Below, one piece after another: positions 5,496 through 19,423 of a DNA stretch of 20,136 nucleotides; within the stretch, counting starts at the first letter, position 1, and each line of letters begins with the position of its first letter. This stretch comes from a virus, in IMG/VR virus record IMGVR_UViG_3300023170_000227, positions 1-20,136 of that record. The stretch is one strand, 5' to 3'. The position numbers were made by a program, and so were the translations under genes. The notes beneath the pieces are model-generated. The model searched no databases. It worked only from the letters and a program-made list of their open reading frames with translations, and was not told the origin of the DNA.

Positions 5496-6572
5496 ATGAG
5501 TTTTGATTTTCAAATAGGGTTTCCTTGCCCACATTTAATCCAAGAAGAACGAGTGCCATTGGACTCGGATCGGATGGGTATGCTCATCTCTCAACCTGTC
5601 GCCTCTACGGGTACGGTTCAGGTTCTAGTGGATGACAAGTATCTTGTTCCTCCAAGTGGATTGCACACACAAGCCTTCTTGCAAAGCAGCCTTTCGGGTG
5701 GCTACCGAATACCAAAGTACGAAACAACACTTGTGGTTTCTTCTAACACAGAAACACATACCATTGAGTTGCCCGTATCTAAGTCTATCTCTACGAACAA
5801 TCTTGTGGATATTCTCAACGCCCATTTCAAAAACATAGAGGCGACCAACTATGAGGGATATCTTGTATTTGTTGAAAGACAATCGAGAGGAGGAGAGAGT
5901 CGTATAAAAATAACAGGGAGTGCTCGTCAAGCATTGGGTTTTGATTTCTGTTCTACGGCAAAGGGCAAGACACTCTATCCCGCTTGGCGAATGGAACGAG
6001 TTCCAAATAAAATCAATGAGCGATATCCTAAGTTCGTACAGCCTTTGAAGAATAATCCAATTCTCAAGGTGACCTACTCTACTCCAGCGGAGAGATGTTT
6101 GCGTTGTGGTGCGACCTATGTGGAGAACGATTTTCGAGTAGACTCCAATGGAGAGCTGCAAACCATAACGGACGAGAACTTGCTCTACCAAATATGTTTG
6201 AAAGCCTTGCTGACAAAGAAAGGTTCAAATCCTTTTTTCAGATTCTATGGGACAGGCTTGTTGGATGCCATTGGTTCAAAGGCTCTTATGGGGGTTCAAA
6301 ACTTTTTGCGATTTGAGATCAATGATGCCTTACGGATTGTTCAGAAAGCCCAAACATCCCAAAGCAAATACCAAACGGTCACTCAAAAAGAGAGATTGCT
6401 GAATGTTCTCAATGTTACGGTCATTCCACACGAGAATGATCCTACCGCTTTCTTGATTGAGGTGACCGTACAGAACGCCTCTCAACAACCTATATCATTG
6501 TCGATAGTCTATACCGCCCCAAGTGCAATAGCACTTGCTGGAACAAATGGATTGTCGCTTGGAGTACGATAA
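5496..6572 (+). CDS. gp25/GPW-like baseplate wedge protein with N-terminal extension
   Basis: 358 aa. The C-terminal part (about residues 225-355) fits the gp25/GPW family. It has a helix ending in LLTKKGSNP, then a YGTGLLDAIGS stretch corresponding to the family's FG-loop region, a long helix, and two final strands (VLNVTVIPHE and FLIEVTVQN). T4 gp25 is about 130 aa, so roughly 220 residues are an extra N-terminal region. That region is beta-rich, with a helical LVDILNAHF element, and contains CPH at residues 11-13 and a CLRCG knuckle at 201-205 just before VENDFR; these may form a small metal site. The RBS is weak (only GGA/AGAG within 12 bases), unlike its neighbours, so expression may rely on reinitiation from the hub gene 23 bases upstream. 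The stop overlaps the next start (TAATG). gp25-type proteins join the inner baseplate wedge to the sheath. Confidence 0.85.
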   Translation: MSFDFQIGFPCPHLIQEERVPLDSDRMGMLISQPVASTGTVQVLVDDKYLVPPSGLHTQAFLQSSLSGGYRIPKYETTLVVSSNTETHTIELPVSKSISTNNLVDILNAHFKNIEATNYEGYLVFVERQSRGGESRIKITGSARQALGFDFCSTAKGKTLYPAWRMERVPNKINERYPKFVQPLKNNPILKVTYSTPAERCLRCGATYVENDFRVDSNGELQTITDENLLYQICLKALLTKKGSNPFFRFYGTGLLDAIGSKALMGVQNFLRFEINDALRIVQKAQTSQSKYQTVTQKERLLNVLNVTVIPHENDPTAFLIEVTVQNASQQPISLSIVYTAPSAIALAGTNGLSLGVR

Positions 6573-9500
6573 TGACACCCACTATATTAGGCTTCGATGG
6601 AGCATACCGAGAAAAGTTTATCTACAACACAACACTCTCCGAGCAATTCTTATCGGGAATACTCCCTCCCAATACAATAGATGTGCAAGTATCTGTTAGA
6701 GGTTCGTCTTTTGTGGCAGATCCTGACCTTATTGTCTTTGAGGATTCTTCTTGGTCTTTTCCAAATCCTAGTGTCTATCCTGAGGGATTTGAGCTGGTTG
6801 ATGGTGTCAATACCATTTTGATTCGGGCTATTTTGTCGAATGGAGATGTGACACCCCCTTGTGAAATACACATCACCTATTCAAAAGAAGCGAGTGTTTC
6901 CGTCGTTGGACAACCTCCAACGAACATCTCCCTTGAAAAGTTCGACACACACATTGAGGTGTTCTGTGATGGTGTCGATTCACCCTATGTCGTTGGCTAC
7001 AACTTTTATGCCTCATTGGATTCAGGGGGTGGTGCATCAGGATACATTCGTGTCAATCTGAACCGAGTTATCTCAGGAATATCCCTACAAGAAGAAACCG
7101 AAATCACATCCATTGAACTTGATGAGGACATCCTTTTGAATGATGAGGGAAATCATGTCACCGATCCCTTGTTTTTTGGCATCGCCTCCCAACAGAGAAC
7201 ACAACTAGGCGAGATTCTCCAACAGAAGTTGGTTTCCCTCTCAGAGATTCCTGAAACAACCAAGACCATTCGAGCTTCCGTTTCTATCAAGGCACTTGAT
7301 ACTAAACAACGATTCTCTTTCAAGCATTTCAGAAAGGCAGGTCGGAGTTCTTCTCCTGCGACCGTTCCAAATGGTTCTTTTTCTTCTTTGTCTGTGACCG
7401 ATCCTATTTACTATGTGGCGACATCTGTCTTTTATGATCCGACACTCAATCTTCAATTTGAGAGTCCTTTCTCCGCAGAGGTGGTTGGGAAACCTTTGAG
7501 TATCACAACAAGTGTTGCCAATCTCCCACAGGTCACTCGACAAGATGTTCGAGATAATTTCATCTCAAGTATTTTGAGAACCCAACCCAATCTCCGAGTT
7601 GAGCCAAATTCTGTCATTTCGGACACGGTCATCCAACCTTTCGCCTCAGAGGTGGAGAGAATGAGATTCATCTTGGATTTCATACATCGTTCTCAATCTT
7701 TGGCGACACTCCTTGTCTTAGATGATCCAAATAATACAGGGGAATCACAAGAGGTCAATCAATCTCTATACAAGAGAGCCTTGCAGACCGCTTTCAATCT
7801 CCGTATTCCATCTCAAGTTCAGACAATGATCAATCAGATGTTTGACCAAAGAGCTCAGAACTTTGGTGTCATTCGGCACAATGGTCGTAACGCCATTGGG
7901 AGAGTGACCGTATTCACAAGAACAAGACCAACACAAACAATCTATCTTCCAAGTGGAACTCCTTTACAAGGAGGGGGTGTTTCCTTTCGTACAACTCAGA
8001 ATGTGAATATGTTTGTGGATCAACTTGCGACCTACTATAACCCTGTTTCAAAAGTGTGGGAGATAGACATCACCGCCGAAGCTGTGGAATTGGGTGCAAA
8101 GGGAAATGTTTCTTCGGGAGTGATTTCTTCCATAGCGGCAAGGAGTTTGAGTGTCACAAACAAAGCCGCTTTCTTTGGAGGACAAGACGAAGAAACCAAC
8201 GCACAACTTGCTCGAAGAACAATGAACGCATTGGCGAGTGTTGATACAGGAACAGAGCGAGGCTATCTACAACTTGCCGCTGACATTGTGGGAGTGCGTA
8301 ATGTGGAGATTGTTCCATCAGGTCACGACCTAATGCAGAGAGATTTGGATGAGAACAATGTACATCGTGGTGGAAAAGTGGATATTTGGATTCGAGGGGA
8401 GAATCTCTCTAGGGTTACGGACACTTTCGCCTTTGAATATAAACTCGCAAAAGACATCCAATTTGAGGTAGTGGGTTCTCCAGCCAATCTTATTTTCCGA
8501 GCTGGTGATTCTGAACTTTCTGAGGAATCTCCCATCCTTGAGATGTTGGACAATGAAGAAGCGGGATTCTCTTTCCGTAATGCAAGCACAGGAGAAACCT
8601 TTGATTTGACAGGTGTGAAGATTCTTTCGTACAACACCATTCAACTTTCGTCAGATGTGGTACAACCAAGTGTTTCCTATGGGCATCTCCTCTTTGGAGA
8701 TTACAGGCGACAAGAGGGTTCTGAGTTTTTATTGACACGACAACCTCCAAAAGAAATCGTTTCGGTTCAAGGAACAATCAGTGGAATCTTGCCTACGAGT
8801 GCTTACGACCTTATCATTCCAACCGCACCTTTGGCGGAGGGCTACTCTACAAAGACCAATGCGCTCTTGAAAATCAATGGCTATACAAATGACGAGGGGA
8901 ACAGAGTTCCCTCAGGGCAACCTCTCTTTGCGACAGACGAAGAACATACCTTGCTAGGCAACTATTCAGAGTATGTTGGCAATCTTGGTGCAGATCCACT
9001 CACATTGGTCGTAAAAAGCCTAGATGGACTAATCACCTACCGATCTCCAAGTCACCCAAGTGGCATTTCCGATTACACTTTCGTTTTGGGAGATGGTGTC
9101 ACTCCTCTTGGTATCAAACGAACGGACAATAGTGAAATCAAGTCAGGAGAAACAGTTCTATTCTCTTATCAATACGATGAAGCCTTTACGGTCACCTACA
9201 CTGTCAATTCTTCTTTGAAAGCAATCCAAGACAAGGTTGATGAAATGAAACACATCACCGCCGATGTGTTGGTGAAAGGTGCGATTGAGGTACCAATTGA
9301 TCTTGAAATGACAGTCGCACTTGTCACAGGGGCAGATCCAGCTTCCGTAGATAGATCTGTACGAACGAACCTACAAAACTTTTTCAACAACTTGAATATG
9401 GGAGATCCCATTCGTCAATCGGATATCATTGAGGTTGTGGATTCTGTGAGTGGTGTTTCTTATGTTGTTGTTCCTCTCTCAAGGATGACTCGACAAGAAA

Positions 9501-10078
9501 ATGCCCTTGTGGTTCGAGAGTTATTGGCAACCTCTCAGATCAATGATTCATTGTTATTGCCTCAACTCTCAACGGCAAAGGCATCTGTTTATCTGATACA
9601 AGATCCATTGGATTTTGCGACCTACGACACAGGCGGTGTCGGTGAAGATTTTCGAGGTGTCTTTATAGACGATTCTCTATTGGTAAATGTAGATAGATTG
9701 ACATCCACCGCAGAGAATGTTCTTGCTGCCTCAGCGCTCTCTACTGCACCGAATCGTTCTTTCATTATTGGGGATGGTGGTGCTGTTATTTTGGGATACA
9801 CAGACGACCAAACACTCATTGATCAAGGGTATGTGGATATCTATGACCGTCAAGAAAGAAGAAAAGAACTGACAAAAAACCGAGTGATGGTTTCTTTGGC
9901 ACCCAGCGATGATATTCAACTCCGAAATCTGAAAGCGACTTATTATGTTGCTTACGATTCGGCGGTGAAGAATCTTGATCCAATCAATGCGGAATACCAT
10001 ACACTAGGCAATCTGACAATCACCTACGATGAAGATGTAGCCCTTCAAACTAGGAACATATCGAGAGGAACATACTAA
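6572..10078 (+). CDS. Baseplate J-like (gp6-type) wedge protein
   Basis: 1168 aa. The start is within TAATG, with GGAG at 6561-6564. The core is a baseplate_J-type protein: LPSGTPLQGGGVSFRTTQ (near residue 455) and a strand run ending in AKGNVSSGVISSI, followed by the family signature FFGGQDEETNAQLARR (about residues 534-549). The C-terminal J domain is seen near residues 890-975, with ADVLVKGAIEVPIDLEM, a helix, a MGDPIRQSDIIEVVDSVSGV stretch and VVVPL. The first ~450 residues hold several beta-sandwich segments that look Ig/FN3-like (YNFYASLDSGGGASGY near residue 150; YYVATSVFYDP near residue 280), then a helical segment. T4 gp6 is 660 aa and P2 gpJ about 300 aa, so this is an enlarged version, which I associate with large phages. 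Such proteins polymerise as the wedge ring that triggers sheath contraction. Confidence 0.93.
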   Translation: MTPTILGFDGAYREKFIYNTTLSEQFLSGILPPNTIDVQVSVRGSSFVADPDLIVFEDSSWSFPNPSVYPEGFELVDGVNTILIRAILSNGDVTPPCEIHITYSKEASVSVVGQPPTNISLEKFDTHIEVFCDGVDSPYVVGYNFYASLDSGGGASGYIRVNLNRVISGISLQEETEITSIELDEDILLNDEGNHVTDPLFFGIASQQRTQLGEILQQKLVSLSEIPETTKTIRASVSIKALDTKQRFSFKHFRKAGRSSSPATVPNGSFSSLSVTDPIYYVATSVFYDPTLNLQFESPFSAEVVGKPLSITTSVANLPQVTRQDVRDNFISSILRTQPNLRVEPNSVISDTVIQPFASEVERMRFILDFIHRSQSLATLLVLDDPNNTGESQEVNQSLYKRALQTAFNLRIPSQVQTMINQMFDQRAQNFGVIRHNGRNAIGRVTVFTRTRPTQTIYLPSGTPLQGGGVSFRTTQNVNMFVDQLATYYNPVSKVWEIDITAEAVELGAKGNVSSGVISSIAARSLSVTNKAAFFGGQDEETNAQLARRTMNALASVDTGTERGYLQLAADIVGVRNVEIVPSGHDLMQRDLDENNVHRGGKVDIWIRGENLSRVTDTFAFEYKLAKDIQFEVVGSPANLIFRAGDSELSEESPILEMLDNEEAGFSFRNASTGETFDLTGVKILSYNTIQLSSDVVQPSVSYGHLLFGDYRRQEGSEFLLTRQPPKEIVSVQGTISGILPTSAYDLIIPTAPLAEGYSTKTNALLKINGYTNDEGNRVPSGQPLFATDEEHTLLGNYSEYVGNLGADPLTLVVKSLDGLITYRSPSHPSGISDYTFVLGDGVTPLGIKRTDNSEIKSGETVLFSYQYDEAFTVTYTVNSSLKAIQDKVDEMKHITADVLVKGAIEVPIDLEMTVALVTGADPASVDRSVRTNLQNFFNNLNMGDPIRQSDIIEVVDSVSGVSYVVVPLSRMTRQENALVVRELLATSQINDSLLLPQLSTAKASVYLIQDPLDFATYDTGGVGEDFRGVFIDDSLLVNVDRLTSTAENVLAASALSTAPNRSFIIGDGGAVILGYTDDQTLIDQGYVDIYDRQERRKELTKNRVMVSLAPSDDIQLRNLKATYYVAYDSAVKNLDPINAEYHTLGNLTITYDEDVALQTRNISRGTY

Positions 10079-11363: not shown

Positions 11364-11397
11364 CTCCTTTGTCATAGAAATGTACTTTGGAGATTAT

Positions 11398-12450
11398 ATG
11401 ACTGCTGTCTCTCGTATTGCTGATAGATATATGATTCGTAAGGCTTGCGAAATTGCCTATTCGGATATTTCAAACATAAGAACGGCATCTTTGAATAAGA
11501 GTGCTCAACGAGTTCGTAGAGAGTTCTCTGTGGAACTCCTAGAAGCCTTCGCCTCTCCTATTATGGGGAGAATCGCAGGATTGGGCATTGGCATTAAAGA
11601 CATCACCAAGAAAGTGAAAGACATTTGGGGTGCTTTCAAGCAAGCCCCTAAATATTGGGAAGAATTTAAGAAAATGTTGGGTATCAAATCGACCTCTCTC
11701 ATTGGATTGGTTGCCGAGTTGCCAAAAAAGGTGTGGAACTTTTTCAAACAAGGAGGCAAGTCTTTGATCTCTTTTGGGAAAGGACTCGCAAAGCAAATCG
11801 GGGATTTTGCAAAGGTGTTCTCTGCTGTCAGCGGTCAAACAGCTCTTTTCAATCAAGTGGTGGAGAAAGGAACCTCTTTGGCGACCAACTCTACAGTGTA
11901 TCAAGAAAAGGTCAAGCCTCTCCTCGATAAGGCGAAAGCCTTTGCTCAAAAGTTTATGGGCAAGTTTGGTGGTAATGGCAACGGAAAAATCACTGAGTTT
12001 TTCAAGAATGTCATTCAGACTTTCCTAGATGGCAAACTTTCAAACCTTGTGGGAACACCTCTCAAAGCCTATGTTTTCTTCAACATTTGGATCAATGTGA
12101 CCGAGATTTCTTGGGATTTCACAGGCATCGCCAAAGGGATGTTGGGTTTGATTTCTTGGAGAGAACTTTTCGCCTCTCTACCTGAGAGTGGTGTTGGGTT
12201 GATTATCTCCATCTTTTTGGGTGCCGCCTTTCCAAGTATCACATTGTTCGGTCCTGCAGCGGGTTCCCTTCTCACAAAGATCACAGGGAATTGGTTGATG
12301 TTCATCGCCCCTGTTTTTCAGATTATGATTCTTGCTAAGAACAAGCTCATTGAGTTTGGGAAATCTGCTATCAAGTTCTTTTGGGACAAGATGGGAGTAG
12401 ATAATTGGAAAGAGCAAGGGCTTCCTGAGGTCATTCCATTAAAGGGCTAG
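11398..12450 (+). CDS. Virion-associated protein with C-terminal hydrophobic helices, function unknown
   Basis: I place the start at ATG 11398 (350 aa), because GGAG at 11389-11392 sits five bases before it. The in-frame ATG at 11380 has no such site and lies upstream of that SD. The N-terminus reads MTAVSRIADRYMIRKA, followed by RTAS at residues 28-31, a short signature that recurs near the LIRLAH motifs of two other proteins in this block. The middle (about residues 50-190) is a series of lysine-rich amphipathic helices. The C-terminal third has three strongly hydrophobic stretches near residues 224-241, 265-292 and 297-313, the second with glycine and proline. A protein of this kind could insert in a membrane during infection or coat the inside of the particle. 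No family is recognised. The stop at 12450 is followed by a 53-base gap with a promoter-like element. Confidence 0.8.
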   Translation: MTAVSRIADRYMIRKACEIAYSDISNIRTASLNKSAQRVRREFSVELLEAFASPIMGRIAGLGIGIKDITKKVKDIWGAFKQAPKYWEEFKKMLGIKSTSLIGLVAELPKKVWNFFKQGGKSLISFGKGLAKQIGDFAKVFSAVSGQTALFNQVVEKGTSLATNSTVYQEKVKPLLDKAKAFAQKFMGKFGGNGNGKITEFFKNVIQTFLDGKLSNLVGTPLKAYVFFNIWINVTEISWDFTGIAKGMLGLISWRELFASLPESGVGLIISIFLGAAFPSITLFGPAAGSLLTKITGNWLMFIAPVFQIMILAKNKLIEFGKSAIKFFWDKMGVDNWKEQGLPEVIPLKG

Positions 12451-14287: not shown

Positions 14288-14314
14288 TTATCATTTTTTT
14301 TTGGAGTATATATT

Positions 14315-17263
14315 ATGTTAAAATTTGAAACGAAAGATCTCCCTTCGAGCTCTTTGAAAGATATTGAAAGAGCCCTTGCAGCCTCTCCCAAATTAAAGAC
14401 AAGGGGTAAGATTGAGTTAGAAATACGAAAGACCGATGGTATTCCTCGATATGAAATAGATGGTGGCAAGTTGATTTTCCACCATAGTAAATTTGGAAGC
14501 AGAAACACAAAGATTATCGGTACATATTTCATAATTGCGGATTACATTCTACAACAAGCCTCTAATGGACAACAATGGAAAAAGCATTGGAAACCAAACA
14601 AGAGAGAGGTCAGACGCTTGATCGCAGAGAACAAAGCCGCGTTTTCTCCTTTGAGAGATATTATTGGTCAGAAGCAAATTGATGTCTTAGGGTTTGCCGT
14701 TGTTCTTCTTGTTTATGTTCAATATGCGAAAGGCAAATACGAGGATGAGGGCAAGACTTTCAAGAACACTTTCTTGAACTTTTTCAAGCGAGATACATCG
14801 GACGAGATTTCAGCTCAAACCAATGACGAGAAATTGATTCATCTCCAAAGTAGTACAAGGATCATTCAGCAATATAATGATCTTCCTGAAAAAGGTGTAT
14901 CAACAAACTTAGATTCTTACTTGCCTGATGGCTTAAAAACTCGTTCGGTTGATTTTCTCAAGGAAAAAACGACAATTGCGGAAGCCATTGATTTTCTTGA
15001 GAGTGAAATTGACGAAAAAAGTGGTGTGAAACGAGAGCAACAGATTTTGGCTTTCACATCAACGGTTGAGAAAGAGCTCACCGAAACCTTTATGAAAGAG
15101 GTTCTTGGCAAGCCCGAAGAAAAAGTAGTCGATGGGGAAACCGTAAAGATCAAACCTGCGTCCTTTGAGGCACAAAAATGGCAAAAAGAACAACGAGAGA
15201 TGTTGGATTCTTTTGCAGATGTTTTTAAGGTAGAAACGGGTTCTGTTATCATCAATGATCTTCAAAGCACATTGGACAATCAAAATCCCAAAGACTTTGA
15301 GATGGTTTCTAAACTAGACAAAAAACAGAAAGACATTTGGAAAGACCTCATTGAGAAAACAAACTCAACAGACATTGATTTTTCAGAGCTGTTCAAACCA
15401 TTTGAATTAGAGATTGAGGATGGGAAAGTCAAGTCTAGTGGATTCACTTGGTATACCGCTGCCAACAATAAACTAGAAGATTTTCGTGTATTGGTTCAAC
15501 GGGCAAAAGAGAGTGGTGAGACGGGTTATGATGATATGGAGTTGGAAGCAGCCCTAGAACAAGTTGTTGAAATGCTACAGCCACCTATCCCTGATCCTGA
15601 AACTCCTGTTGTCACAATTGGACCAATCAAAGGTGCTGACAGAGCGATTCAGAAGATTGCTAAGTACGACCAAGACATATCTCGTTTGGGTGATATTGTT
15701 CGTTTCACAATTGTTGTGGATAAAGACTTGAGCAACTTTGAAGAAATCTTTGAAACCCTGCGACAACAAGTAGAAATGCAAGGGGGAGAAATCGCTACAA
15801 GGATTGAGAATCGCTATGAGGAACCCACTCCTGTGGCTTATGGTGATGTCACATTTTCTGTTCGATATAAGTCAGGTCTTGTTGGAGAGGTGCAAATCAC
15901 AACACCCGTAATGGCAGCGGCAAAAGAACGATTGCACAAAGAGTACGAGAAGCAACGAAATGTTGATTCATACACAGAGTACTTAAAGGGGATGGCAAAA
16001 TCTGTAGAAGACATTATGTTGTTGGAGGATAAAAGACAAGCGGGTGACTTGGCATCAAATCTGAAAAAGACTATCGCTGAGATTCAGTCCAAATTGATTG
16101 ACGATGCCAAACCAAAGCACAAAGAACAAATGGAATCTGAGTTCAACAAGGTTATCGCCCCCATACAAGAGGCGATTGCTAAGTTGGAATCGGGAGCGAT
16201 GTCGGTCGCACAAGTTGCTTCTTTGGTTTCAAAGACAGCAAAGTTCTTCCCTTCTATCAAAGACTTGTACGAATACGAGCAAACACAATTGAATCAGATA
16301 CAAGGATATATAGAGGCGAGAACCGCTATGGGTATGCCTGATTTCATTCAACCTTTCCCACTCAGAACAACTATGAAAGGTGGAGAGATTGTGTTCAAAG
16401 ATGATTTCCTTGAACACATTATGGAGAATGTTGAACAGAACCTTGATGTTGGCTCTGAAAACAATCCAACTCAAGAATATCTTGAAAGTGTCGCCAAGCA
16501 GATTCTTCTTGCTAGGAGTTACGACAAAGATACCTATGGATATCCAGCATCATACACAAAGCAAGTACAAAAAGCTCTCCAAAAGAAATCTTCTTCTTTG
16601 CACACAAAGGTCGCTGCGGACATTGGTGTAGATGGTAGTGGATACTATATGATTGAGGGAATTCCTTATTCTTGGGATGGCTTTATGACGCTTCCTAAAT
16701 TCTTCACAGGAAATGATCCTGCTGGTGAGGTCGATGCGGAACTTGCTGATTTCTTGAGAAAGGCAACTCCAATCACAGAGGATGCTTTCCACAAAGCCGT
16801 TGCTGAATTGACAATGGAGAAAGCACAGAAGCGTGAAGAAATGCTAGAGCTCGGAGAGGCGATGATTCAAGCCTATCGTCAAGCGAAAGCAACAGGTGAG
16901 ATCAAGACAGCCTCAACCAAGACCGCGAAAGAGAAAGTTCTTCGCAACAAGTTGATTCGTCTTGCACATACCAAGCCCCATCTTCGTAAGCACATTCTTC
17001 CTTTGTTGAAAAATGCCACAAACTCCTCAGAGTTGTTGAAAGCAAAGACTATCTCTATCAAAGGTTATGGTATGTTTACCGTTGTAGGTGCTGATGTGAA
17101 AAAACAAGACATCTATCTCAAAGAGATGGGTGGCAGAAAAGAATACACTCTTTCTGTAACACTTGGGGCTTCGTTAGAGGGGAATGGTGCAGAGTTAAAG
17201 GCTCGTGGGAACACAAGAATGAGACCAAGATTCATAGATGGAAAATTAATTACCATTATTTAA
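14315..17263 (+). CDS. Large multidomain phage protein with RelA/SpoT-like nucleotidyltransferase domain and LIRLAH motif
   Basis: 982 aa. GGAG at 14303-14306 stands eight bases before the ATG. Domains in order: an N-terminal alpha/beta region (1-120), a hydrophobic helix (122-138), and a mostly helical charged region (145-430). A RelA/SpoT-like domain follows (about 435-550), then a helical/coiled-coil region (550-660), a mixed region (660-860), one LIRLAH motif (876-899) and a beta-rich C-terminal domain of about 75 residues. In the RelA/SpoT-like part, K439, R443 and K447 sit in the helix where synthetases bind ATP phosphates. D460 (GDIVRFTIVV) and E525 (GEVQITT) match the two metal ligands, Y509 lies near the GYxSxH position, and H541 matches the following helix. 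The expected serine of the ATP loop and the full GYxSxH motif are not kept, so activity is uncertain. The neighbours are virion-type genes, so it may be carried in the particle. Only the nucleotidyltransferase-like part is recognised. Confidence 0.85.
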   Translation: MLKFETKDLPSSSLKDIERALAASPKLKTRGKIELEIRKTDGIPRYEIDGGKLIFHHSKFGSRNTKIIGTYFIIADYILQQASNGQQWKKHWKPNKREVRRLIAENKAAFSPLRDIIGQKQIDVLGFAVVLLVYVQYAKGKYEDEGKTFKNTFLNFFKRDTSDEISAQTNDEKLIHLQSSTRIIQQYNDLPEKGVSTNLDSYLPDGLKTRSVDFLKEKTTIAEAIDFLESEIDEKSGVKREQQILAFTSTVEKELTETFMKEVLGKPEEKVVDGETVKIKPASFEAQKWQKEQREMLDSFADVFKVETGSVIINDLQSTLDNQNPKDFEMVSKLDKKQKDIWKDLIEKTNSTDIDFSELFKPFELEIEDGKVKSSGFTWYTAANNKLEDFRVLVQRAKESGETGYDDMELEAALEQVVEMLQPPIPDPETPVVTIGPIKGADRAIQKIAKYDQDISRLGDIVRFTIVVDKDLSNFEEIFETLRQQVEMQGGEIATRIENRYEEPTPVAYGDVTFSVRYKSGLVGEVQITTPVMAAAKERLHKEYEKQRNVDSYTEYLKGMAKSVEDIMLLEDKRQAGDLASNLKKTIAEIQSKLIDDAKPKHKEQMESEFNKVIAPIQEAIAKLESGAMSVAQVASLVSKTAKFFPSIKDLYEYEQTQLNQIQGYIEARTAMGMPDFIQPFPLRTTMKGGEIVFKDDFLEHIMENVEQNLDVGSENNPTQEYLESVAKQILLARSYDKDTYGYPASYTKQVQKALQKKSSSLHTKVAADIGVDGSGYYMIEGIPYSWDGFMTLPKFFTGNDPAGEVDAELADFLRKATPITEDAFHKAVAELTMEKAQKREEMLELGEAMIQAYRQAKATGEIKTASTKTAKEKVLRNKLIRLAHTKPHLRKHILPLLKNATNSSELLKAKTISIKGYGMFTVVGADVKKQDIYLKEMGGRKEYTLSVTLGASLEGNGAELKARGNTRMRPRFIDGKLITII
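15617..15970 (+). other. RelA/SpoT-like (alarmone synthetase fold) domain within the 982 aa protein
   Basis: This covers about residues 435-552 of the 982 aa protein. The order is a helix with KGADRAIQKIAKY, the GDIVRFTIVV strand with D460, a helix (FEEIFETLRQQV), a basic strand (IATRIENRY), AYGDVTFSVRYKSG, GEVQITT with E525 and the helix AAAKERLHKEYEKQR. This matches the order and spacing of the RelA/SpoT synthetase domain (about 110 aa). It is seen by eye from remembered family features and has not been confirmed by profile search. Confidence 0.7.
16940..17011 (+). repeat. LIRLAH motif, copy in the 982 aa protein
   Basis: Residues 876-899. This 24-residue motif starts LRNKLIRLAH and ends RKHILPLLK. 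It shares most of its positions with three copies in the 401 aa protein at 18218-19423, and KTAS stands 9 residues before it (864-867). It separates the large N-terminal part from a small beta-rich C-terminal domain. The pattern suggests a helix-turn-helix-like amphipathic peptide or tag. Confidence 0.8.
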
Positions 17264-17276
17264 TCTTGGAGCAAAA

Positions 17277-18173
17277 ATGTCTGTCGTATTTCAACAAGGT
17301 CAAACAATTGGGAGAGGGGATTTAGATATCTTCCTCTCCAATTCCAATGGCAACGCTGCAAATGCGTATGACATATACTTTGCCCTTTATTATGTAGATG
17401 CCACAACCTCTCAAGAGGTTCTTATTGGTAGTGATAGAAGAACACCCGCCAACCCCTCCGTTGGCGAATATTACGCTGCTCTTGCGATTCCGAATGGTGC
17501 CCCTGTGGGTGACTATCGAATCCGATGGACATTCAAGGAGTTGGCGAGTTCTCCCTATCAACAAGTTGTGCAAGAGTTCGCTGTTGTAGGAGAAGCCCTT
17601 GTGACATCTGCTAGTCCTTATTCTACTTATGAACAAGAGATGATACACAAGTTGAGAATTCTTCTCCGAGATCAGAATCCTGACAAGTTCTATCGTTTCC
17701 GACCCCCTGAACACGAGGGAGATATTGGTCGATACAATCAAGTCTTTGGGTACATTTGGGAAGATGCCGAGCTCTTAGAATATATCGAACGGGCATTGGA
17801 TTGGTGGAATATGATGCCACCTGAAACAGAATCCTTGAATACGGTCGATAAGTTGGTTGGAAATAAGCCCGTATGGAGAACGGCTATCTTGTGGGGTGCT
17901 ATTGTCCATGCAGCGACCGCTCTCACCTTCAATTGGATCGCAGACGAGTTTGATTACTCCATTGGTGGTGTATCTCTTTCCTTAGAGAAATCCTCTAAGT
18001 ACGAGGGTATGAAATCCAATGCAGAGGGACAGTTTCAAGCCGCTGCTGAGGCAAAGCAAAGGACGACCAAGATTATGCGTTCATTGACGCAACCAAGATT
18101 CGGTCGAGGGGTTCGGAGTGCTTTCGGACCGCATGTTGGGAAAGGTGTCTTATCCCCTAGAAAGTTCGTTTAA
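17277..18173 (+). CDS. Conserved phage structural protein with Ig-like N-terminus
   Basis: 298 aa. GGAG at 17268-17271 is five bases before the ATG, only 13 bases after the previous stop. Residues about 1-108 look like a single Ig-like beta sandwich (DIYFALYYVDATTSQEVLIG, then GEYYAALAIPNGAPVGDYRI and FAVVGE). Residues about 115-298 form a helical part with LLRDQNPDKFYRFRPP, FGYIWEDAELLEYI and WWNMMPP. A later DYSIGGVSLSLEKSSKYEG segment follows, with a basic C-terminus (FGRGVRSAFGPHVGKGVLSP). I associate the combination of the PP and IWEDAEL segments with the SSKY...SFGP-type tail with structural proteins of large phages, from memory and without a search. The hydrophobic stretch AILWGAIVHAATALTFNW is probably a buried helix rather than a membrane segment. 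A role in virion structure is likely; a more exact role (neck, decoration or fibre attachment) cannot be read from the sequence. Confidence 0.8.
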   Translation: MSVVFQQGQTIGRGDLDIFLSNSNGNAANAYDIYFALYYVDATTSQEVLIGSDRRTPANPSVGEYYAALAIPNGAPVGDYRIRWTFKELASSPYQQVVQEFAVVGEALVTSASPYSTYEQEMIHKLRILLRDQNPDKFYRFRPPEHEGDIGRYNQVFGYIWEDAELLEYIERALDWWNMMPPETESLNTVDKLVGNKPVWRTAILWGAIVHAATALTFNWIADEFDYSIGGVSLSLEKSSKYEGMKSNAEGQFQAAAEAKQRTTKIMRSLTQPRFGRGVRSAFGPHVGKGVLSPRKFV

Positions 18174-18217: not shown

Positions 18218-19423
18218 ATGTTTAATTTACGAAATGAATTGATTCGCTTGGCACATAGCCAACCAAAGTTCAGAAAAGATCTTTTATCCTTGTTGTCGGA
18301 TACAAAGACAGCTTCAAATGAGATGTCCTTGAGATCAGCAATTATCCGATTGGCATATCAAAAATCCGATATGCGTGATGTCCTTATTCCTTTGGCTAAG
18401 GAAGCAGGCTTGATGGACAAGTTGAAAGATATGATTTTCAAGAACAAGGAAACAGGAAAGGACAACAAATTCACCTCTCTCCCCGCAGACCAACAAAAAG
18501 AGATTCGAGAAAAAGCGAAAGAAGAAATCGAAGAAAAGGAAGAAAAGTCTGAGAAAAAGGAAGAAAAGAAAGAGGAAAAGTCTGAGGGGAAAAAAGAAGA
18601 AAAAGCCCCTGAGGGTACGACCGAACGAGCGCGCCCTGATATCTCAAATCCAAGTGATCTCTCTGATGAAGATTTAGATACCGCCATTAAGAGTATGCAG
18701 AAAGACCTAGATGATGTTCGTGGTCAACTCCATTTAATACATCAGGGGCGAGGGTATCCTCAGGCGCAACAAGAGTTTGAAAAAATGGAAAAGGAGATGT
18801 CTGACAAGATGAAACCTTTGACAGATGAACTTGGTGAGAGAGATAAGAAAAAGCAAGAAAAGGCTGAGGAAGAAAAGAAGAAAAAAGAAGAAGAAGCCAA
18901 AAAGAAACAAGAAGAAGCCGCCGCTAAGGAAAAAGCCCGTAGAGATAGTCTGACTCCTGAGGAACGCAAGAAAGAGGACGATGAGAAAGAGGCTAAGAAA
19001 AAACGAGATCAAGAAAATGCTCGTATGATGGAAGAATACTATATGAATCAATGGATGGGTAGGGCGGCAAGTGATTCTGAGTTGCGAGGAAAGGTCATTC
19101 GTCTTGCCCATTCAAATCCCAAAATCCGAAAGGACATTCTTCCCTTGTTGACCAAAGAATCTGCCAGCACTCAATCTCACGCGGATGTGACGACTATATG
19201 GTTCAAGCAGTTCTCAAACGATATGAAAAACTATCGTCCTAGTGTGAAAATCATAGAGACTACGAACTATTATGTGAGATTTATGGCAAATGGTAAGGTT
19301 TGGGTTTTTGAGATGGATGGTGCTTTGAAATTATGGTTGAAAGGAAGCGTGATAGACAAATGGTCACCAAATGCAAACCCTAGTCAAATCATTCGTACAA
19401 TCTTTGATGAACACATCAACTAA
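18218..19423 (+). CDS. Charged coiled-coil protein with three LIRLAH motifs
   Basis: 401 aa. GGAG at 18209-18212 is five bases before the ATG. The protein opens with a LIRLAH motif (residues 4-27), then KTAS (30-33) and a second motif (38-61). A low-complexity Lys/Glu region follows (about residues 95-145), then a defined helical segment (LSDEDLDTAIKSMQKDLDD), a second Lys/Glu/Gln coiled coil (about 205-270), RAAS (282-285) and a third motif (289-312). The last ~85 residues are a separate compact domain (YYVRFMANGKVWVFEMDG). No enzyme motif is visible. The design, a highly charged extended rod between short repeated peptides and a globular end, fits a scaffolding or internal virion protein, or a linker between particle components; this is inference. 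It is the last gene before a strong terminator and has its own promoter-like element. Confidence 0.85.
   Translation: MFNLRNELIRLAHSQPKFRKDLLSLLSDTKTASNEMSLRSAIIRLAYQKSDMRDVLIPLAKEAGLMDKLKDMIFKNKETGKDNKFTSLPADQQKEIREKAKEEIEEKEEKSEKKEEKKEEKSEGKKEEKAPEGTTERARPDISNPSDLSDEDLDTAIKSMQKDLDDVRGQLHLIHQGRGYPQAQQEFEKMEKEMSDKMKPLTDELGERDKKKQEKAEEEKKKKEEEAKKKQEEAAAKEKARRDSLTPEERKKEDDEKEAKKKRDQENARMMEEYYMNQWMGRAASDSELRGKVIRLAHSNPKIRKDILPLLTKESASTQSHADVTTIWFKQFSNDMKNYRPSVKIIETTNYYVRFMANGKVWVFEMDGALKLWLKGSVIDKWSPNANPSQIIRTIFDEHIN
18227..18298 (+). repeat. LIRLAH motif, copy 1 in the 401 aa protein
   Basis: Residues 4-27, starting LRNELIRLAH and ending RKDLLSLLS. It sits at the very N-terminus and is followed at once by KTAS (residues 30-33). 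The motif closely matches the copy in the 982 aa protein, with identical LR, IRLAH and RK...LL positions. Confidence 0.8.
18329..18400 (+). repeat. LIRLAH motif, copy 2 in the 401 aa protein (diverged)
   Basis: Residues 38-61, starting LRSAIIRLAY and ending RDVLIPLAK. It is the most divergent of the four copies: Tyr replaces the final His, the Pro is replaced by Ser, and the end is LAK instead of LLx. It lies only ten residues after copy 1, so the two form a tandem. Confidence 0.75.
19082..19153 (+). repeat. LIRLAH motif, copy 3 in the 401 aa protein
   Basis: Residues 289-312, starting LRGKVIRLAH and ending RKDILPLLT. It follows RAAS (282-285) and precedes the C-terminal globular domain. Its position is equivalent to the copy in the 982 aa protein, which also comes just before a small final domain. 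Confidence 0.8.

What the first reader, a model, noticed from the sequence alone, without database searches (positions are those of the whole stretch)
15617..15970. RelA/SpoT-like alarmone synthetase fold embedded in a large phage protein among virion genes
Residues 435-552 of the 982 aa protein show the order and spacing of a RelA/SpoT synthetase domain. A K/R-rich phosphate-binding helix (K439, R443, K447) comes first, then D460 in GDIVRFTIVV, E525 in GEVQITT and a final His-containing helix. The two acidic metal ligands are kept, while the ATP-loop serine and the full GYxSxH are changed. Known phage small alarmone synthetases (for example the toxSAS type) are stand-alone small proteins; here the domain sits in the middle of a ~1000 aa protein next to structural genes. 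If it is in the particle, it could enter the host at infection and modify nucleotides or tRNA, or change the stringent response. It could also be an inactive structural use of the fold.
Basis: partly seen in the sequence, partly recalled or inferred. Interest (0 to 1): 0.78.

Follow-up and report, generated by a model that had tools for sequence, protein, structure and literature searches.

The report
Possibly self-locked alarmone enzyme in huge phage
A very large bacterial virus carries, among its tail genes, a big protein with a conserved enzyme domain related to bacterial alarm-signal synthetases and (probably) a built-in inhibitor and a delivery tag, which suggests it is packed into the particle and used to disrupt the host's nucleotide metabolism at infection.

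Summary
Residues 435-552 of the 982-aa protein (14315-17263) are a genuine RelA/SpoT-type synthetase domain. A 35-sequence family profile hits Tas1 at 2e-19 and RSH enzymes at about 1e-8. The model matches RSH structures. K439, D460 and E525 are invariant. The claim that phage synthetases are only stand-alone proteins is wrong: Apk2 (MuF fusion) toxins and polyvalent proteins with this domain are published.

New here:
(1) A phage clade with a 'GYRD' acceptor motif (Asp in 34/35), where RSH has S and Apk has G.
(2) A second phage carries a full-length orthologue in the same baseplate operon. Only three parts are conserved: the synthetase (61%), a module at 773-842 (67%) and a tag at 873-905 (58%); the rest is 17-28%.
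(3) The module's best PDB structural match is Tis1, the immunity partner of Tas1, although weakly scored. This suggests a synthetase fused to its own inhibitor.
(4) The 27-residue tag recurs on more than 100 otherwise unrelated huge-phage proteins, including ART and SAM-lyase proteins: a possible delivery signal.

Best reading: a packaged, self-inhibited adenosine 3'-pyrophosphokinase effector. Fold and catalytic residues are shown; activity, acceptor, cis-inhibition and packaging are inferred. New variant of a known kind.

The parts
14315..17263 (+). 982-aa protein holding the synthetase domain; follows a baseplate cluster whose order is conserved in a second phage
   Evidence: ORF; orthologue of 992 aa in L151 after the same genes J-g423-g356-g433-g160
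14303..14306 (+). Shine-Dalgarno GGAG, 8 nt before the ATG
   Evidence: sequence printed
15590..16024 (+). RelA/SpoT-type synthetase domain (residues 426-570), phage 'GYRD' clade
16619..16876 (+). conserved beta-alpha module (residues 769-854), candidate Tis1/IapK-like cis-immunity domain
   Evidence: 67% identical between the two orthologues; in 6 distinct synthetase proteins; top PDB structural match is the Tas1 immunity protein, prob 0.63, E 0.35
16940..17020 (+). 27-residue LRxKLIRLAHxxPxLRxHLLPLLK tag (residues 876-902)
18218..19423 (+). second tagged protein of the window (401 aa) with three tag copies (18227-18307, 18329-18406, 19082-19162)
17277..18173 (+). 298-aa conserved protein, used as marker of the huge-phage clade (relatives on contigs up to 618 kb)
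6572..10078 (+). baseplate J-like protein, shows that the locus is a baseplate cluster
   Evidence: Pfam PF04865 6.5e-25, phrog_6 3e-32
5496..6572 (+). sheath initiator / gp25-like baseplate protein
   Evidence: Pfam PF10934 8e-4, phrog_975 2.4e-4
11380..12450 (+). 356-aa gene of the cluster; its distant homologue also lies directly upstream of the tagged synthetase protein in L107

Best explanation
The protein is a virion-associated effector of a huge myophage whose working part is an active RelA/SpoT-type 3'-pyrophosphokinase of a phage-specific clade related to the Apk/Tas1 (p)ppApp synthetases. During assembly it would be held inactive by a Tis1-like module in the same chain, and the 27-residue tag (or another part of the chain) would direct it into the particle. 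On delivery into a new host the lock is released, and the domain moves pyrophosphate from ATP to the 3'-OH of an acceptor, most likely an adenine nucleotide, depleting ATP/ADP and blocking purine synthesis, so that host metabolism is switched off early in infection. Shown: the fold, the catalytic residues, their conservation, the operon and the tag family. Inferred: activity, acceptor, cis-inhibition, packaging and delivery.
For: Homology and catalytic conservation. In the only full orthologue the synthetase (60.8%), the module (67.1%) and the tag (57.6%) are kept while the rest is 17-28% identical, and the catalytic residues are identical. The syn2 motif is R-x-T/S as in Apk (RYT) and not AVR as in RSH (motif rule from PMC12226406). 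The module's top PDB match of 350,542 chains is Tis1, in complex with the very enzyme that is the domain's top match. Tis1-like domains inhibit (pp)pApp-making toxSAS through the acceptor site (PMC11782079). Relatives without the module often have an HD_4 (small alarmone hydrolase type) gene next to them: 14 of 30 loci with enough downstream sequence, and no locus has both. The gene lies in a baseplate operon in two phages; relatives lie next to the portal (16 of 31) or inside LPD38/MuF/ART polyvalent proteins. Tagged proteins include ART-PolyVal and SAM-lyase members.
Against: No activity, packaging or delivery data. The syn3 motif is AYGDVT, neither GYxSxH nor GYxGxN, and syn4 is IT, not YH, so the acceptor is uncertain. 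The Tis1 match is weak by itself (E 0.35, TM 0.43-0.47, model from 6 sequences); by sequence a profile of the module ranks Tis1 only 37th of 20,002 (some of the higher ones are the modules themselves), and hhalign with an IapK gives no support. The tag is mostly N-terminal elsewhere but internal here. The module/hydrolase exclusivity is not statistically strong at this sample size.
Confidence: 0.45

Rival explanations
1. Active synthetase with a different acceptor: it pyrophosphorylates tRNA (as toxSAS do) or makes (p)ppGpp or another product; Asp511 in place of the RSH Ser / Apk Gly re-shapes the acceptor pocket.
For: Asp at this position in 34/35 members with neither the RSH nor the Apk residue pair; the family is a distinct clade by sequence.
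Against: Nearest solved relative by far is Tas1; syn2 is Apk-like; the candidate module is Tis1-like, a type seen with (pp)pApp makers and not with tRNA-targeting toxSAS (PMC11782079).
Confidence: 0.25
2. Active enzyme, but not a virion cargo: it is made late in the infected cell and acts there, for example to stop competing phages or re-set host metabolism, and its place in the baseplate operon only sets its timing.
For: No direct evidence of packaging; a position at the end of a late cluster suits a passenger gene; synthetase genes of relatives lie at various places.
Against: Relatives sit beside the portal or inside MuF and polyvalent proteins that are thought to be packaged (PMC5512222); the protein bears a tag shared with other predicted effectors.
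Confidence: 0.25
3. Catalytically dead RSH fold kept as a structural part of the baseplate.
For: ATP-loop serine and GYxSxH are changed; neighbours are structural genes.
Against: Metal and phosphate-binding residues are invariant or nearly so across 35 diverged proteins, and the domain is far more conserved than the rest of the chain; changes in the same motifs are present in active Tas1/Apk2; hydrolase genes accompany many relatives; most related huge-phage records lack the protein, so it is not a core structural part.
Confidence: 0.07
4. The conserved 773-842 module is not an immunity domain but an unrelated small domain (folding, assembly or virion-docking).
For: Weak Foldseek E-value and no significant sequence match.
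Against: Found only in synthetase proteins in the set searched and its top structural match is the cognate inhibitor fold.
Confidence: 0.4

Closest known systems
Tas1 / Apk1 and its immunity protein Tis1 (Pseudomonas T6SS; PDB 6OX6)
   Same: Nearest solved relative of the synthetase domain by sequence and fold; R-x-T in syn2; the second conserved module has Tis1 as its top structural match.
   Different: No PAAR domain; GYSGVN is AYGDVT; the inhibitor-like module is in the same chain instead of a separate gene; viral baseplate operon.
Apk2: MuF-(p)ppApp synthetase polymorphic toxins of temperate phages with IapK and Aph1 (PMC12226406)
   Same: Phage-encoded RSH-type domain in a longer virion-linked protein; immunity by protein contact and/or an HD hydrolase.
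   Different: No MuF domain detected; syn3 differs; the domain is internal, not C-terminal; no separate iapK or aph1 gene in the 55 kb known of this phage; phage is a huge, probably virulent one.
RelA/SpoT domains in polyvalent proteins (Iyer et al. 2017, PMC5512222)
   Same: RSH domain embedded in a long phage protein, predicted to be packaged and to alter the host after injection; several members of the same 'GYRD' family carry LPD38, ART-PolyVal or MuF.
   Different: No LPD or other annotated effector domain was found in the 982-aa protein; it has its own module and tag.
CapRel (fused toxin-antitoxin small alarmone synthetase; PMC11782079)
   Same: Works alike if the module is an inhibitor: synthetase and its lock in one chain.
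   Different: CapRel's lock is a pseudo-zinc-finger domain acting on the donor site and it is a host defence; here the module looks Tis1-like and the gene is viral.
T4 capsid-targeting sequences and giant-phage head-protein propeptides (PMC5694885)
   Same: Short, mostly N-terminal sequence shared by otherwise unrelated phage proteins.
   Different: Unrelated in sequence, longer (27 residues), sometimes internal or repeated; no cleavage or packaging data.

Membership tests
RelA/SpoT (RSH) synthetase superfamily | Significant similarity to RSH synthetase domains | tested here: met
   Family profile versus PDB: Tas1 2.3e-19, RelP 4e-9, Rel enzymes about 1e-8; 26 of 35 members hit PF04607. The window domain alone is just under Pfam's cut-off (25.3 vs 27 bits).
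RelA/SpoT (RSH) synthetase superfamily | Catalytic Asp and Glu plus basic phosphate-binding residues | tested here: met
   D460 and E525 35/35, K439 35/35, K447 34/35, R443 32/35; aligned with RelSeq D264 and E323
RelA/SpoT (RSH) synthetase superfamily | Synthetase fold | tested here: met
   AlphaFold2 model pLDDT 77; top PDB folds all RSH/SAS/Tas1, prob 1.00
canonical (p)ppGpp synthetases (long RSH, SAS) | GYxSxH acceptor motif | tested here: not met
   AYGDVT in the window; Asp in 34/35 of the clade
Apk1/Apk2 (p)ppApp synthetases | syn2 R-x-T | tested here: met
   RFT here; R 33/35, T or S 31/35 in the clade; RYT in Apk2 per PMC12226406
Apk1/Apk2 (p)ppApp synthetases | syn3 GxN | tested here: not met
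   D-V-T here
Apk1/Apk2 (p)ppApp synthetases | N-terminal PAAR or MuF domain | tested here: not met
   No Pfam hit but RelA_SpoT in the 982-aa protein
Apk1/Apk2 (p)ppApp synthetases | Tis1/IapK immunity partner | tested here: inconclusive
   Module in the same chain; structural top match Tis1 at E 0.35; sequence support weak
Apk1/Apk2 (p)ppApp synthetases | Makes (p)ppApp from ATP | not testable with these tools
   needs enzyme assay
phage polyvalent proteins | Several effector domains and LPD-type domains in one chain | tested here: not met
   Only RelA_SpoT found in the 982-aa protein; relatives do have LPD38/ART/MuF
phage polyvalent proteins | Packaged in the virion and delivered | not testable with these tools
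   needs virion proteomics
fused toxin-antitoxin toxSAS (CapRel) | Pseudo-zinc-finger antitoxin domain in cis | not tested
   no specific model of that domain was at hand; no Pfam hit outside RelA_SpoT
T4-type capsid-targeting sequence | N-terminal, shared by packaged proteins, cleaved by the prohead protease | tested here: inconclusive
   94 of 135 tagged ORFs have it near the N-terminus, but it is internal here; packaging and cleavage unknown

The most novel reading that the evidence does not exclude
A clade of huge phages marks a whole arsenal of otherwise unrelated effectors with a conserved 27-residue delivery tag. One of them is a new type of alarmone-like toxin: a GYRD-type 3'-pyrophosphokinase fused to its own Tis1-like inhibitor, carried locked in the particle and unlocked on entry.
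Probability: 0.3. Interest if true: 0.82.

Novelty: new variant of a known kind. Interest (0 to 1): 0.62.

Why it matters
If true, huge phages would use pyrophosphorylated nucleotides as an injected weapon, with the safety catch in the same chain, which links T6SS-type (p)ppApp toxins, phage polyvalent proteins and fused toxin-antitoxins. The Asp-for-Ser/Gly change at the acceptor motif in 34/35 members points to a synthetase clade for which I found no measured substrate. The 27-residue tag, under protein-level selection on more than 100 unrelated proteins, gives a direct way to list candidate injected effectors of huge phages and to test how they are packaged.

Tried and rejected
Searching IMG/VR with the whole protein or the single domain found only the same phage; a family profile was needed. 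PHROGs gave nothing for the full protein, PADLOC nothing. The J protein as a probe by exact peptides found only the same phage; record-by-record search worked. HD hydrolase (Aph1-like immunity gene): absent from the 53-kb contig of this phage and from the window ORFs scanned; 9 of 29 records of relatives have one, so its absence in an incomplete genome is not evidence. A scan of IMG/VR with Tas1 plus an Azospirillum homologue confirmed nothing. A gut-phage Apk2-IapK-Aph1-like locus (L253) was used to obtain an IapK; its IapK matches Tis1 at E 0.013 but not the module at sequence level. Inactive structural fold: rejected as main reading because of catalytic conservation. Module versus hydrolase exclusivity: seen but not statistically strong. 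An N-terminal RVAxRYL motif seen in the same phages was noted, not followed. NCBIfam also gave weak hits to a plant-pathogen effector with a Rel-like domain; not followed.

Full report
OBSERVATION. The 982-aa ORF at 14315-17263 has a good ribosome-binding site (GGAG, 8 nt before the ATG) and follows a set of co-directed genes that includes a baseplate J protein (PF04865, 6.5e-25) and a sheath-initiator/gp25-like protein. Residues 439-544 match Pfam RelA_SpoT with E 2.5e-4 (whole protein) and 1.9e-5 (excised domain), just below the curated cut-off. The only significant PDB sequence hit is Tas1, the (p)ppApp synthetase of PDB 6OX6 (E 3e-6).

IS IT A REAL SYNTHETASE DOMAIN? Three distant relatives (two huge phages found by searching the records of related phages, and Bordetella phage PHB04, 35% identical) seeded a family search that brought 40 viral loci and only 4 bacterial ones. 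A 35-sequence alignment matches Tas1 at 2.3e-19, RelP/YwaC at 4e-9, S. aureus Rel at 1.5e-8 and RelSeq at 7e-8; the RelSeq alignment puts D460 on D264 and E525 on E323. K439, D460, E525 and Y544 are invariant (35/35), and K447, R443, R463, Q527 and H541 nearly so. The AlphaFold2 model (pLDDT 77) has Tas1, SAS1, RelP and Rel as top solved folds (prob 1.00, TM about 0.5), and polyvalent-type phage proteins as top viral folds. The RSH fold is therefore established; activity is not.

A DISTINCT CLADE. RSH enzymes have GYxSxH at the acceptor motif and Apk enzymes GYxGxN. In this clade the S/G position is Asp in 34/35 (D511 here) and the H/N position is mostly M, L or N (T513 here). The syn2 motif is R-x-T/S (33/35 R, 31/35 T or S), like the Apk RYT and unlike the RSH AVR; syn4 is usually IH/VH (IT here) (motif rule from PMC12226406). 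The acceptor is therefore uncertain, with adenine nucleotides favoured.

AN ORTHOLOGUE SHOWS WHAT MATTERS. Contig L151 (IMG/VR 3300046171_000315) has the same order J-g423-g356-g433-g160 followed by a 992-aa orthologue. Overall identity is 34%. Identity is concentrated in the synthetase (426-550, 60.8%), a module (773-842, 67.1%) and a tag (873-905, 57.6%), while the rest is 17-28%; the catalytic residues are identical. This is the pattern of a working enzyme with two accessory elements in a loosely constrained carrier.

THE MODULE. Similar modules follow the synthetase in six distinct proteins (window, L151, L104, L105, L107, L110) and in no other ORF of the set searched with the strict profile. 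Its model (pLDDT 77, 6 sequences) has as top match among 350,542 PDB chains 6OX6 chain B, the immunity protein of Tas1 (prob 0.63, E 0.35, TM 0.43/0.47, 73 columns over a 76-residue chain); the second match is from a CDI toxin-immunity complex. The score alone is weak, and sequence comparison adds little (rank 37 of 20,002; hhalign negative; no PDB sequence hit to Tis1). What makes it worth attention is that the hit is the partner of the very enzyme that is the synthetase domain's own best match. Tis1-like domains block the acceptor site of (pp)pApp-making toxSAS (PMC11782079). A fused, self-locked enzyme is thus the favoured but unproven reading. Relatives that lack the module often have an HD_4 hydrolase gene beside them (14 of 30 with enough downstream sequence), and none of the loci has both; the numbers are too small and the loci too related to call this significant.

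THE TAG. Residues 876-902 (LRNKLIRLAHTKPHLRKHILPLLKNAT) recur in the neighbouring 401-aa ORF (three copies) and across related huge phages: 135 non-redundant tagged ORFs, 94 with the tag near the N-terminus; an IMG/VR pattern scan gives 99 stretches. In INPHARED only the 485-kb phage LR745208 has it, and no paper in the library prints the search strings used. For 122 distinct tags the mean pairwise amino-acid identity is 71% while fourfold-degenerate sites differ in 69% of comparisons (near saturation), and the sequence after the tag is unrelated (6% identity). So it is kept by selection at the protein level on unrelated proteins. Of 84 tagged proteins scanned, few have known domains, among them ART-PolyVal (2), SAM lyase (1), pentapeptide repeats and DUF5710/DUF7007. 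By analogy with T4 capsid-targeting sequences (PMC5694885) a packaging or delivery signal is a reasonable guess; it is untested. Synthetase proteins with the tag: window, L151, L104, L107; L110 has a diverged form at both ends.

CONTEXT. The window is a 20-kb virus record; a 53-kb contig of the same phage (L001/G001) extends it to about 55 kb with genes that look like sheath, tape-measure and hub genes. The 298-aa neighbour finds relatives on contigs of up to 618 kb, and J finds 16 of 28 of those records; only 2 of 28 have a PF04607 hit, so the synthetase is a variable cargo, not a core virion part. No alarmone hydrolase was found in the known part of this phage, but the genome is incomplete.

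KNOWN VERSUS NEW. RSH domains in long packaged phage proteins were described as polyvalent proteins and MuF fusions (PMC5512222), and MuF-linked Apk2 domains make (p)ppApp and are toxic (PMC12226406). The finding is therefore a new variant of a known kind. New are the GYRD clade, the candidate cis-inhibitor, the huge-phage baseplate context and the tag. Confidence by step: RSH homologue 0.97; catalytically active about 0.8; adenine acceptor about 0.5; module Tis1-like about 0.55-0.6; delivered by the particle about 0.6.

Noticed in passing
window 16940-17020, 18227-18307, 18329-18406, 19082-19162; L011, L014, L015, L024, L054, L107, L151, L196, L197 and others: A 27-residue tag LRSKLIRLAHxNPELRPHLLPLLKEA on more than 100 otherwise unrelated huge-phage proteins, mostly just after the start Met, with protein-level conservation and saturated synonymous sites; possible packaging or delivery signal.
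   Followed up: partly
window 11380-12450 (SRIADRYMIRKA...), L011:6518-7651, L014:4786-5919, L015:7209-7649, L019, L169, L188, L197, L207: A second recurrent N-terminal motif, RVAxRYLxA: 17 of 1303 ORFs have it in the first 60 residues, against 1 in residues 61-120 and 0 in shuffles.
   Followed up: partly
L111, L113, L115-L122, L124, L125, L127, L130, L002 (Bordetella phage PHB04): Portal gene, GYRD-type synthetase protein and HD_4 (small alarmone hydrolase type) gene lie side by side in many medium-size phages; looks like a synthetase with a hydrolase immunity gene.
   Followed up: partly
L102:835-1974 (G027, 437-kb phage): Another huge phage of the clade has a different RSH-type protein (YQGVNY motif, Apk-like GxN) a few kb after its baseplate J gene.
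   Followed up: no
L253:3291-4699 (MT835636.1, gut phage): Unannotated Apk2-like, IapK-like and Aph1-like genes in a row; the IapK matches Tis1 at E 0.013.
   Followed up: partly
L010 / LR745208.1 about 350,200-351,000: Huge phage of the clade encodes an HD_4 alarmone-hydrolase-type protein next to tagged genes and has an insertion resembling an intein in its homologue of the 298-aa gene.
   Followed up: no
window 17277-18173 versus L014, L015 and others: The 298-aa gene lies after the baseplate cluster here but upstream, near the tail-sheath region, in close relatives (91% identical in L014): a possible recent move of the gene.
   Followed up: no
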